Program-made: the position numbers and the translations under genes
The notes under the pieces: model-generated
The model's database searches: none
Seen by the model: the letters and a program-made list of their open reading frames with translations, nothing else
Told to the model about the DNA's origin: nothing
Origin: Saccharibacter sp. EH611
GTDB taxonomy: Bacteria; Pseudomonadota; Alphaproteobacteria; Acetobacterales; Acetobacteraceae
Assembly (NCBI RefSeq): GCF_009834765.1
Contig: NZ_WVHP01000021.1
Coordinates: forward strand, 186,001 to 250,000
Direction of reading: 5' to 3'
DNA: 64,000 nt
Shown: positions 35,800-38,779 of the stretch, in pieces
Position numbering within the stretch: position 1 is the stretch's first letter
Layout: the number at the start of each line of letters is the position of its first letter

Positions 35800-36456
35800 A
35801 TGAAGTCTTCCTTCCAGCCCCGTTCCGCTTTGGATGCAGATAGCGTTCGTTTAGCGTATCGTCGATGGGCCCGTTTTTATGACTCCGTTTTTGGTGGAGT
35901 ATCAGCCTTTGGGCGCCGGCAAGCGGTCGCAGCGGTCAATGCTCTCCCTGGTGAAAAAGTTCTCGAGGTTGGTGTTGGTACGGGGCTTGCTTTACCGCTT
36001 TATACGAAAAATAAGCGTATTACAGGGATCGACCTGTCCGAGGATATGCTTGAAAGAGCACGTCAGCGAGTCGTCCGTGAACATTTGAGCAATGTGGATG
36101 ATCTCGCGGAGATGGACGCTGAAGCCACCGTCTTTGAAGATAATAGCTTTGATATTGCTGTGGCGATGTTCGTTGCCTCTGTAGTGCCGCATCCTGAAGC
36201 GTTGCTTAAAGAGCTGAAACGTGTTGTCCGTCCCGGCGGGCATATTTTATTTGTAAATCATTTTCTTGCTCAAGATGGGCTGCGCCTTAAAATTGAGCGT
36301 GCAATGGCGAGTGCCTCGCGCTCGTTGGGGTGGCATCCGGATTTTGCGATTGAGACACTTCTTCCGCCAGAAGATATGCAGAGAGCGACGATCAGACCTG
36401 TTCCGCCGCTTGGCTTGTTTACCCTCGTGACATTGCCACAAAACAAGGATACATAA
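35800..36456 (+). CDS. pmtA: PmtA-type phospholipid N-methyltransferase
   Basis: A class I SAM-dependent methyltransferase resembling the Rhodobacter-type phosphatidylethanolamine N-methyltransferase, which makes phosphatidylcholine. Seen: SVRLAYRRWARFYDSVFGGVSAFGR at the N-terminus (RR..A..YD..FG pattern of this group), the SAM motif VLEVGVGTGLALPLY (about residues 54-68), the acidic ITGIDLSEDMLERAR and post-I motif VAMFVASVVPHPEALLKELKRVVRPGG. Length (218) is typical. A different small-molecule methyltransferase is possible. It precedes the oxidase-like gene by about 140 bases, in which only a weak repeat-rich stretch is seen. Confidence 0.8.
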   Translation: MKSSFQPRSALDADSVRLAYRRWARFYDSVFGGVSAFGRRQAVAAVNALPGEKVLEVGVGTGLALPLYTKNKRITGIDLSEDMLERARQRVVREHLSNVDDLAEMDAEATVFEDNSFDIAVAMFVASVVPHPEALLKELKRVVRPGGHILFVNHFLAQDGLRLKIERAMASASRSLGWHPDFAIETLLPPEDMQRATIRPVPPLGLFTLVTLPQNKDT

Positions 36457-36597: not shown

Positions 36598-37815
36598 GTG
36601 ACTTCAGACCAAGGTGATTCTTCAATTTTCCCCTCTAAAACAGCCGTCTTAGGGGGAAGTTTTTTATTATTGGCTCTTTTCTCAGGCATTTTAGGTGGAG
36701 CACTCGCTCTGCCTGTATTTCGTACATCCCCGACGGAAGGGATGGTCGTCGCGCACGCCGTTCTCATGACATTTTTTGTGATGTGCCCTGCCGTTTTGGG
36801 GGGTGTTGCCTGCTGTTCCTTACCCAAGCTTCTTGGGGGAGATCGTATGATGCTGCCGACAGCCTCCGTGATCGGCTGGGGGTTATTGGCAGGCGGCGTT
36901 CTGTCTCTTCCTGTCTCTCCGGCCATTGGCTTGGCTTTATGGGCGTTGGGAATGGGGGCCGTCGCTATGGATGTCATCGCAACGGTGCTGGAAGGTCGGC
37001 AGGTACGTTTTCGTGAGCTGGCACCGCTGGCTTGGTCTCTGCTTGCTCTGTCTATGGCTCTTATTGTCGTCGTGCCTGTTTTATTGGCTCTTTTGACTAA
37101 GGGAGTGGCTCCGATTTCGGTCGTGGAAAAGCTGCGTGTGCCAGAAATGAGCATGATGCTTATTCCAGCCCTAGGGATCGTGGCGCAAACTCTCTTTGGG
37201 GGAACAGCATCCTGCTACGGGCTCACTCATCGTGTGGCCCCTTATGCGTTTATTGCCATGGGATTGGTGGGGCCCCTTTTATGGGCTGATGCGCTCTTTG
37301 GGGGCATCCCAGATTATTACGACATGTTGGCACTTATCGTGGGGCAGGTTGTCCCCGGGGGCAGCATTCTGTTAGCGCTTTGCCGCGATAGTTGGTCTCA
37401 TTCTCTTCGCTACAGGGCGTCAGTGTTATGGTCTTTGGGGGCTGTCGCGTTACTCGTCGTCGGCTGGGGCGTTGCTCTTTTTCCTGATCTTATGGCGGGC
37501 CATGGGATGGGTGAAGAATTTGGCCATCAAGCAGCAGTTTTTGGTGCATTGCTAGCGTTAAGTGGGGCCTTTTATGCGTGGTTTGCGCGTGATCTGGCTG
37601 TACGTTCTTTATGGTATGAAAGCGCTGGAAGCGTTCATGCGCTGCTCACCTTTGCTGGAGCTCTTTGTACCCTTGTTCCACAATGGGAAAGGCTCGCTGT
37701 CCTTTTGATGTCGGCGAGTCTCGTTGCGTATTTCTATTTGGGCATGGCGACTTGGAAGCGTGTCTTGCAAAATTATATGCGCGCTGCCTCTAGCGTGGTG
37801 GTAAAAAGAGGATAA
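36598..37815 (+). CDS. Degenerate heme-copper oxidase subunit I (CtaD/COX1) homologue lacking the CuB site
   Basis: About 12 hydrophobic helices align by eye with CtaD/COX1. Ungapped similarity covers helix II (VAHAVLMTFFVMCPAVLGG), helix V (PLAWSLLALSMALIVVVPVL) and helix VI (VPEMSMMLIPALGIVAQ against the oxidase HPEVYxLILPxFGxxS). His53 matches the helix-II ligand of low-spin heme, and His310 (EFGHQAAVFG) the helix-X low-spin ligand. The oxidase-active residues are gone: V181 replaces the CuB His of HPEVY, S185 its cross-linked Tyr, D231/A232 the CuB His pair, and F308 the high-spin heme His. At 405 residues it is about 130 shorter than CtaD. Start is GTG 36598. It lies five bases before ctaB. 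It cannot reduce oxygen as canonical enzymes do; a role in low-spin heme binding is inferred. Confidence 0.75.
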   Translation: MTSDQGDSSIFPSKTAVLGGSFLLLALFSGILGGALALPVFRTSPTEGMVVAHAVLMTFFVMCPAVLGGVACCSLPKLLGGDRMMLPTASVIGWGLLAGGVLSLPVSPAIGLALWALGMGAVAMDVIATVLEGRQVRFRELAPLAWSLLALSMALIVVVPVLLALLTKGVAPISVVEKLRVPEMSMMLIPALGIVAQTLFGGTASCYGLTHRVAPYAFIAMGLVGPLLWADALFGGIPDYYDMLALIVGQVVPGGSILLALCRDSWSHSLRYRASVLWSLGAVALLVVGWGVALFPDLMAGHGMGEEFGHQAAVFGALLALSGAFYAWFARDLAVRSLWYESAGSVHALLTFAGALCTLVPQWERLAVLLMSASLVAYFYLGMATWKRVLQNYMRAASSVVVKRG

Positions 37816-37819
37816 CAAG

Positions 37820-38779
37820 GTGGCTCATCGCTCGTCTTTTCGTACCCTCTCTCCAATCAGGGAGTTATTTTCTCTAGAGGGGCGTGACGGCGACGCCGCC
37901 CTAAGAGAATGGCTTCTTCTGCTGAAGCCTCGTGTGATCTCTCTGGTTGTGTTTACAGGGCTTGCTGGCATGGCTGTGGCCCCGCGCTGGCCCTCCATTC
38001 CGATTGGGTTGATTGTCATCAGCTGTATCTGCATCGGGGCTGGGGCTGCTGGGGCTATCAATATGTGGTATGACCGCGATATTGACGCCATTATGAAACG
38101 CACTAGCGTACGTCCTGTGCCTGATGGACGCGTGCAAGCAAGCTCCGCTTTGATCTATGCTATCGTTTTATCTGTCATCTCCGTCATTGTGCTATGGCTT
38201 GCAACAAATGTCTTAGCCGCGGGCATCCTTGCTTTTTCCATCTTCTTTTATGGCGTTGTGTATACGATGTGGTTGAAGAGGAACACGCCGCAAAATATCG
38301 TCATCGGTGGAGCTGCGGGGGCTTTCCCACCTATGATTGGCTGGGCAGCAACGATGGATTCTTTGGATGTATTGCCCGTTACGATGTTCGCAATTGTCTT
38401 TTTGTGGACGCCACCGCATTTTTGGTCGCTCGCTTTATATGCCTGCAAAGATTATGGAAAAGCGGGAATTCCGATGTTACCGGTTATTAAAGGGCCGCGA
38501 CATACACGCCAACAGATTGTTTTTTATACGATAATTCTAACCGCTGTTTCATTGGTTCCTAGCTTTGTAGGGCAATGCGGATGGTTCTATACGGCAAGTG
38601 CAGTCATATTAGATGTTGGCTTTCTCTATTTTACCGTTAAGGTGTTACGAGACCGTCAGGATGAAAAAGGATTTAGTCAGACAGCTGACAAGCCAGCACG
38701 TTTAGCCTTTCGTTATTCGTTAGCGTATCTTTTTCTCCTCTTCTGTGGACTTCTAATTGATAGGGTTCTTTTGGCATGA
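37820..38779 (+). CDS. ctaB: Protoheme IX farnesyltransferase (heme O synthase)
   Basis: CtaB, a UbiA-superfamily prenyltransferase, adds a farnesyl group to heme B to give heme O. Seen: LLKPRVISLVVFTGLAGM at about residue 34, the first aspartate motif NMWYDRDIDAIMKRTSVRPVP, the second conserved region YTMWLKRNTPQNIVIGGAAGAFPPMIGWAA, and DYGKAGIPMLPVIKG. About nine membrane helices are expected. The start is GTG five bases after the oxidase-like gene. Its stop overlaps the next small ORF (ATGA). Acetic acid bacteria use bo3-type quinol oxidases needing heme O, which would explain why ctaB is kept while the neighbouring subunit I has decayed. Confidence 0.94.
   Translation: MAHRSSFRTLSPIRELFSLEGRDGDAALREWLLLLKPRVISLVVFTGLAGMAVAPRWPSIPIGLIVISCICIGAGAAGAINMWYDRDIDAIMKRTSVRPVPDGRVQASSALIYAIVLSVISVIVLWLATNVLAAGILAFSIFFYGVVYTMWLKRNTPQNIVIGGAAGAFPPMIGWAATMDSLDVLPVTMFAIVFLWTPPHFWSLALYACKDYGKAGIPMLPVIKGPRHTRQQIVFYTIILTAVSLVPSFVGQCGWFYTASAVILDVGFLYFTVKVLRDRQDEKGFSQTADKPARLAFRYSLAYLFLLFCGLLIDRVLLA

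What the first reader, a model, noticed from the sequence alone, without database searches (positions are those of the whole stretch)
36598..37815. Cytochrome oxidase subunit I homologue that keeps both low-spin heme histidines but has lost every CuB and high-spin heme ligand
Hand alignment to CtaD/COX1 is ungapped through helices II, V, VI-VII and X. His53 and His310 match the two axial ligands of the low-spin heme. V181, D231 and A232 replace the three CuB histidines, F308 replaces the high-spin heme histidine, and S185 replaces the cross-linked tyrosine. Random decay would not be expected to spare exactly the low-spin pair, and the frame is intact. The gene abuts ctaB, which makes heme O. 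I infer an oxidase-derived membrane protein that binds one bis-histidine heme, perhaps for quinol electron transfer, heme handling or sensing. I do not know whether homologues have been described.
Basis: partly seen in the sequence, partly recalled or inferred. Interest (0 to 1): 0.92.

Follow-up and report, generated by a model that had tools for sequence, protein, structure and literature searches.

The report
Dead oxidase keeping one heme site
Acetic acid bacteria carry a shrunken relative of the cytochrome oxidase core protein that has lost its oxygen-reducing site but has kept, in nearly every species examined, the two histidines that hold the other heme, which suggests it was repurposed as a heme-binding protein rather than being a decaying leftover.

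Summary
The 405-aa frame at 36598-37815 descends from COX1/CtaD: profile E 4e-79 against solved COX1, confident 12-helix model, Z 34 to bacterial oxidase. His53 and His310 occupy the low-spin heme ligand positions; the CuB, high-spin-heme and Tyr positions are replaced.

It is a family. In 90 Acetobacteraceae genomes it lies between a methyltransferase gene and ctaB; the two His are kept in 89/90 and 89/89, the helix-VI CuB His in 0/90, the high-spin His in 2/90. A survey chosen by CtaB gave 57/58 and 58/58. The one exception is a broken frame, very likely the same gene in both. dN/dS is about 0.12; one origin on a quick CtaB tree. Five genomes without a CyoB-like oxidase lack it and ctaB together.

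[quoted passage not shown] The retained bis-His site contradicts that and argues against plain decay. I propose a heme-binding partner of CtaB in heme supply to bo3 oxidase; heme binding is inferred, not shown.

The parts
36598..37815 (+). COX1-like gene: 405 aa, 12 predicted long helices, low-spin bis-His site retained, CuB/high-spin site lost
36754..36756 (+). codon of His53, equivalent of the helix-II low-spin heme ligand
   Evidence: sequence; His in 57 of 58 and 89 of 90; codon varies CAT/CAC among homologues
37525..37527 (+). codon of His310, equivalent of the helix-X low-spin heme ligand (second His of HxH)
   Evidence: sequence; His in 58 of 58 and 89 of 89 (one truncated row set aside)
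37138..37140 (+). codon of Val181, in place of the helix-VI CuB His
   Evidence: His here in 0 of 58 and 0 of 90
37150..37152 (+). codon of Ser185, in place of the cross-linked Tyr
   Evidence: Tyr in 0 of 58, 0 of 90
37288..37293 (+). codons of Asp231-Ala232, in place of the helix-VII CuB His pair
   Evidence: His in 23 and 4 of 58; 47 and 10 of 90
37519..37521 (+). codon of Phe308, in place of the high-spin heme His
   Evidence: His in 1 of 58, 2 of 90
37820..38779 (+). ctaB, heme o synthase, 4 nt downstream; downstream of the COX1-like gene in 89 of 89 loci where that end is in view
35800..36456 (+). methyltransferase gene upstream; upstream in 90 of 90 short-form loci and found in 4 of 7 loci with full CtaD

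Best explanation
In the ancestor of the acetic acid bacteria the aa3 cytochrome c oxidase was given up, but ctaD stayed in place beside ctaB and was rebuilt into a 12-helix membrane protein whose loops and oxygen-reducing centre are gone while the low-spin heme pocket remains. Shown here: descent, shared gene order, purifying selection, near-invariance of the two axial His; single origin is supported, not proven. Inferred: the protein binds one heme by two His. It would be heme B or O in this organism, since no heme A synthase was found. Proposed mechanism, less certain: it sits beside CtaB, holds the substrate heme B or the product heme O in the bis-His site, and hands it on during assembly of the bo3 ubiquinol oxidase.
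For: Fold and homology. Ligand counts; across 39 clusters of mean identity 28% both His tie for ranks 4-9 of 395 columns. Selection; the His codons switch CAT/CAC while the residue stays. Other oxidase features are gone: K-path Lys 0 of 58; Mg ligands, propionate Arg pair and a loop Trp fall in gaps in 58 of 58. One origin on a quick CtaB tree, SH-aLRT 94. ctaB follows in 89 of 89 loci in view. Joint absence: five genomes (G031, G092, G096, G141, G233) lack the COX1-like gene, a ctaB over the cut-off and a high-scoring CyoB-like oxidase, yet keep the methyltransferase and other flanking genes; three to four separate losses on a quick tree. No CtaA and no CtaG in the window's genome. Surf1 was found in 0 of 23 carriers and 6 of 6 genomes with full CtaD. 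Precedents: CtaA-CtaB complexes, and Surf1 as a His-ligated heme-binding assembly protein (PMC9145763, passages).
Against: No heme has been seen on the protein. Adjacency to ctaB is inherited from the ancestral oxidase operon, and joint loss could be one deletion of neighbouring genes. Four family genomes (G003, G079, G203, G272; the first three outside the carriers on the CtaB tree, the fourth not placed) have the methyltransferase next to ctaB with no COX1 match between and do have CyoB-like oxidases, so CtaB can serve bo3 without it. Surf1 is missing in those four as well, so its absence is not special to carriers. Matsutani 2014 (abstract recalled; paper not held) reports that A. pasteurianus CtaB works in E. 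coli. The Arg pair that holds heme propionates in oxidases is lost. The first helix-VII CuB His is also kept in 47 of 90 (17 of 39 clusters), so retention is not confined to the low-spin pair, though it is far weaker there.
Confidence: 0.4

Rival explanations
1. Structural role without heme: the protein only stabilises CtaB in the membrane, as suggested in print.
For: Stated as probable in PMC10715153 (passage); constant pairing with ctaB; joint absence.
Against: A heme-free scaffold does not explain why the two axial His are kept in 38 of 39 and 38 of 38 clusters at mean identity 28%. Four genomes keep ctaB with no such gene beside it.
Confidence: 0.2
2. A bis-His b-type cytochrome in electron transfer, for example between periplasmic dehydrogenases or cytochrome c and the quinone pool, or a redox or heme sensor.
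For: In oxidases the retained site is an electron-carrying heme site; propionate-side loops are pruned.
Against: One heme is not expected to carry electrons across the membrane (general knowledge); the only subunit-II match in this genome lies next to the CyoB-like gene (subunit III was not searched); it is absent together with ctaB and a CyoB-like oxidase. A link to dehydrogenases was not tested.
Confidence: 0.2
3. Decaying ctaD with no function (accumulated mutations), kept only because ctaB translation depends on it.
For: Recalled conclusion of Matsutani 2014 that ctaD function was lost by accumulated mutations; 4-nt spacing to ctaB here; higher dN/dS than ctaB (0.116 versus 0.055).
Against: Purifying selection, one broken frame among 58, near-invariant His, full 12-helix fold. 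In four other genomes of the family ctaD is gone cleanly, so nothing forces its retention.
Confidence: 0.07
4. The two His bind another ligand (copper, zinc, chlorin) or are structural.
Against: The positions are those of low-spin heme ligands in a fold that matches COX1 at Z 34.
Confidence: 0.08

Closest known systems
COX1/CtaD, subunit I of A-type heme-copper oxidases
   Same: 12-helix fold, low-spin heme His pair, place upstream of ctaB
   Different: no CuB ligands, high-spin heme His, Tyr, K-path Lys or propionate Arg pair in this protein; roughly 130 or more residues shorter than the full CtaD compared
Deranged COX1-like protein / ctaD of Acetobacter (Matsutani 2014, recalled; PMC10715153, passages; APT_01775 in PMC5158111, one passage)
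   Same: by gene order and clade this is the same gene family
   Different: described as lacking all cofactor-binding residues; here the low-spin pair is retained, in the Acetobacter rows too
Surf1 heme chaperones
   Same: proposed role only: heme-binding membrane protein in oxidase assembly
   Different: no Pfam Surf1 match to this protein; Surf1 found in 0 of 23 carriers
CyoB of bo3 ubiquinol oxidase
   Same: same superfamily; uses heme O
   Different: complete oxidase at a separate locus (C21:277334-278680 in this genome; the name CyoB is mine, from its length, score and the COX2-type neighbour)

Membership tests
COX1/CtaD (heme-copper oxidase subunit I) | 12-helix COX1 fold | tested here: met
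   AlphaFold2 pLDDT 91.5, pTM 0.91; Z 34.0, rmsd 3.2 over 365 residues to 6pw1_C
COX1/CtaD (heme-copper oxidase subunit I) | two low-spin heme His | tested here: met
   H53, H310
COX1/CtaD (heme-copper oxidase subunit I) | high-spin heme His | tested here: not met
   F308; His in 1 of 58
COX1/CtaD (heme-copper oxidase subunit I) | three CuB His | tested here: not met
   V181, D231, A232; helix-VI His in 0 of 58
COX1/CtaD (heme-copper oxidase subunit I) | cross-linked Tyr and K-path Lys | tested here: not met
   Tyr 0 of 58, Lys 0 of 58
COX1/CtaD (heme-copper oxidase subunit I) | Pfam COX1 curated cut-off | tested here: not met
   PF00115 not reported at E<=10; the whole-genome scan reports one other locus only
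COX1/CtaD (heme-copper oxidase subunit I) | partner subunit II (CuA) gene | tested here: not met
   the one COX2 match in the genome lies next to the CyoB-like gene
Published deranged COX1-like protein of Acetobacter | clustered with ctaB | tested here: met
   89 of 89 loci with that end in view
Published deranged COX1-like protein of Acetobacter | lacks all residues binding metal cofactors | tested here: not met
   low-spin pair kept in 57 of 58 and 58 of 58
Pseudogene | relaxed selection or broken frames | tested here: not met
   median dN/dS 0.116 in 47 close, non-independent pairs; one broken frame among 58
Heme-binding protein (b- or o-type cytochrome) | bound heme with bis-His spectrum | not testable with these tools
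   needs purified protein
Surf1 | Pfam Surf1 domain | tested here: not met
   no PF02104 match to the protein at E<=10

The most novel reading that the evidence does not exclude
A dead cytochrome oxidase core has become a dedicated heme O (or heme B) carrier: the bis-His pocket of the lost aa3 oxidase now takes heme at CtaB and delivers it to a horizontally acquired bo3 oxidase (acquisition recalled from Matsutani 2014), an adaptor that let a foreign oxidase be served by the resident heme O synthase.
Probability: 0.25. Interest if true: 0.85.

Novelty: new variant of a known kind. Interest (0 to 1): 0.64.

Why it matters
How hemes reach oxidase subunit I is an open question, and this protein looks like a natural separation-of-function case: a COX1 scaffold with the low-spin site alone, kept across the acetic acid bacteria sampled. 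If it holds heme, it is a simple system for studying low-spin heme insertion and hand-over from CtaB, and an example of an enzyme core outliving its enzyme. It also corrects a statement in print that all cofactor ligands are lost.

Tried and rejected
Pfam and NCBIfam scans gave no useful family for the protein. A related-loci scan with alignment A1 failed for lack of a conserved stretch; I searched with CtaB instead, which does not select on the COX1-like gene but returns only the best 80 of 539 confirmed matches. Plain decay was considered and rejected. A strict need of CtaB for this protein was considered and rejected because of four genomes with ctaB and no COX1-like gene beside it. dN/dS for distant pairs (168 pairs, median 0.46, up to 0.90) was set aside as saturated; only pairs over 72% identity and dS over 0.08 were used (47 pairs), and these are not independent. 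The retained low-spin pair was not mentioned in what I saw of the papers found by searches (no hits; listings with starts of abstracts; passages of a few); the key paper, Matsutani 2014, is not held and may contain it. Quinol-site residues and the NOR and cbb3 families were not examined. Genomes without a match to alignment A1, or with a doubtful one, whose ctaB surroundings I looked at and could not use: G009 and G033 (cut by contig ends), G076, G103 and G250 (other arrangements).

Full report
What is there. The reading frame 36598-37815 (+) encodes 405 residues. Searched alone against solved structures it finds COX1 chains at E 3.2e-9; a profile of 51 homologues finds them at 4e-79. AlphaFold2 with that alignment gives pLDDT 91.5, pTM 0.91 and twelve long helices, matching Rhodobacter cytochrome c oxidase subunit I at Z 34.0, rmsd 3.2 over 365 residues. 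So the helix bundle is kept and the loops are pruned. Pfam COX1 does not report it.

The ligands. Aligned with 19 complete CtaD sequences, the window has H53 and H310 at the two low-spin heme ligands, V181 at the helix-VI CuB His, S185 at the cross-linked Tyr, D231 and A232 at the helix-VII His pair, and F308 at the high-spin heme His. Which positions bind what in CtaD is established knowledge of the family, not a result of these calls.

Survey 1, by profile. 397 Acetobacteraceae genomes were searched; the match list printed was cut off. I compared 90 short forms (88 fetched from places in that list, L009, and the window) and 7 full CtaD. The methyltransferase gene lies upstream in 90 of 90 and ctaB downstream in 89 of 89 with that end in view. 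In four of the seven full-CtaD loci the same methyltransferase lies upstream with about 1 kb between, where ctaC would fit (ctaC was not itself identified); I read this as descent in place. Low-spin His: 89 of 90 and 89 of 89. CuB helix-VI His 0 of 90, Tyr 0 of 90, helix-VII His 47 and 10 of 90, high-spin His 2 of 90. Grouped at 70% identity there are 39 clusters of mean identity 28%; the two His are in 38 of 39 and 38 of 38 and tie for ranks 4-9 of 395 columns; the other seven of the top nine are Trp, Gly or Tyr. Not all 90 need be acetic acid bacteria: G274 (L112), for instance, is a 6.1 Mb genome that I did not place.

Survey 2, by neighbour. Loci were chosen by CtaB, not by this protein (best 80 kept). 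Of the 80, 57 have a short COX1-like gene before ctaB: L127-L182 (the top 56 rows of that list) and L206, in Acetobacter, Gluconobacter, Komagataeibacter, Gluconacetobacter, Novacetimonas, Asaia, Swaminathania, Bombella, Saccharibacter, Neokomagataea, Tanticharoenia, Acidomonas, Commensalibacter and uncultured lines. With the window, low-spin His are 57 of 58 and 58 of 58; high-spin His 1 of 58. The exception, Asaia platycodi (L144), has a broken frame, and the fragment in the other frame carries the His; the exception of survey 1 (L071) lies on a contig of the same length, 88,436 bases, so it is very likely the same gene. The surveys overlap: several genomes are in both. Other oxidase features: K-path Lys 0 of 58, D-path Asp 10 of 58, helix-VI Glu 29 of 58; Mg ligands, propionate Arg pair and a loop Trp in gaps in 58 of 58; the Trp two places before the helix-VII His pair is kept in 58 of 58.

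Selection and origin. In 47 close pairs the median dN/dS is 0.116 (maximum 0.25), against 0.055 for ctaB and 0.063 for the methyltransferase. The gene is less constrained than its neighbours but clearly constrained. His codons alternate between CAT and CAC. On a quick CtaB tree the short form needs one change, SH-aLRT 94 (below the 95 mark), with the long-branched L206 outermost.

Losses. Five genomes (G031, G092, G096, G141, G233) have no COX1-like match, no ctaB over the cut-off, and no high-scoring CyoB-like oxidase (G096 and G233 none; G031, G092 and G141 one COX1-family hit each of 139-145 bits in frames of 785-833 aa, against about 440-500 bits for the CyoB-like genes). All five keep the methyltransferase, with other flanking window genes beside it. 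On a quick methyltransferase tree they fall among carriers in three to four places. Within the 56 top loci by CtaB none has ctaB without the COX1-like gene; this is a capped list, not a census. By contrast G003, G079, G203 and G272 have methyltransferase and ctaB side by side with no COX1 match between and do have CyoB-like oxidases; on the CtaB tree G003, G079 and G203 fall outside the carriers (G272 was not in it). So the pair goes together inside the clade, but CtaB elsewhere manages without.

Organism and heme types. The window's nearest relative is Saccharibacter floricola (93% identity); that the window is another member of that genus is inference. Its genome shows no CtaA, no CtaG, one COX2-type match beside the CyoB-like gene and no Surf1. 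It should make hemes B and O, not A. Surf1 was found in 0 of 23 carriers, 0 of the 4 genomes with ctaB alone, and 6 of 6 with full CtaD. Loss of ctaC and ctaG was tested in the window's genome only.

What is known. PMC10715153 (abstract, passages, section 13 and the first part of its reference list read; [quoted passage not shown] PMC5158111 (one passage) lists ctaD APT_01775 beside ctaB APT_01774. Matsutani 2014 was not readable; I recall its abstract as showing functional CtaB and CtaA, a ctaD inactivated by accumulated mutations, and a horizontally acquired ubiquinol oxidase. The conserved low-spin pair is not mentioned in the passages I read.

Reading. Conservation says the low-spin pocket is a part under strong selection. 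Since CtaB makes heme O next door, and since the pair is absent where a CyoB-like oxidase is absent, a role in heme supply to bo3 is the best guess. PMC9145763 (passages) gives precedents: CtaA-CtaB complexes, and Surf1 as a His-ligated heme-binding assembly protein. PMC5249081 (passages) states that the mechanism of cofactor insertion is unresolved. My odds: conserved site under selection about 0.95; heme actually bound about 0.8; link to CtaB/bo3 about 0.6; heme hand-over specifically about 0.4.

Labels. Names of window flank genes other than ctaB and the methyltransferase (GshB, Tim44-like, TldD/PmbA, M16 peptidase) are mine, recalled from their sequences and not tested.

Noticed in passing
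35800-36456 (+): The upstream methyltransferase (like phospholipid N-methyltransferase PmtA, below the curated cut-off) keeps its place next to ctaB where the oxidase gene is gone, and survives where the pair is lost; its link to heme or membranes is unexplained.
   Followed up: partly
L178 / L113 (uncultured Commensalibacter), helix X: This line still has His at the high-spin position (HIH) although of the CuB ligands only the first helix-VII His remains; an intermediate or a re-gain.
   Followed up: no
L206: An uncultured Acetobacteraceae MAG with a 454-aa short form and a divergent CtaB, the outermost branch carrying the short form.
   Followed up: partly
survey rows, helix VII: About half of the short forms keep the first His of the helix-VII pair (47 of 90); the others have Asp, Lys, Arg or Gln there, so a polar residue seems to be kept.
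   Followed up: no
L112 (G274): A 445-aa short form between methyltransferase and ctaB in a 6.1 Mb Acetobacteraceae genome, scoring low; may mark a second short-form lineage outside the acetic acid bacteria.
   Followed up: no
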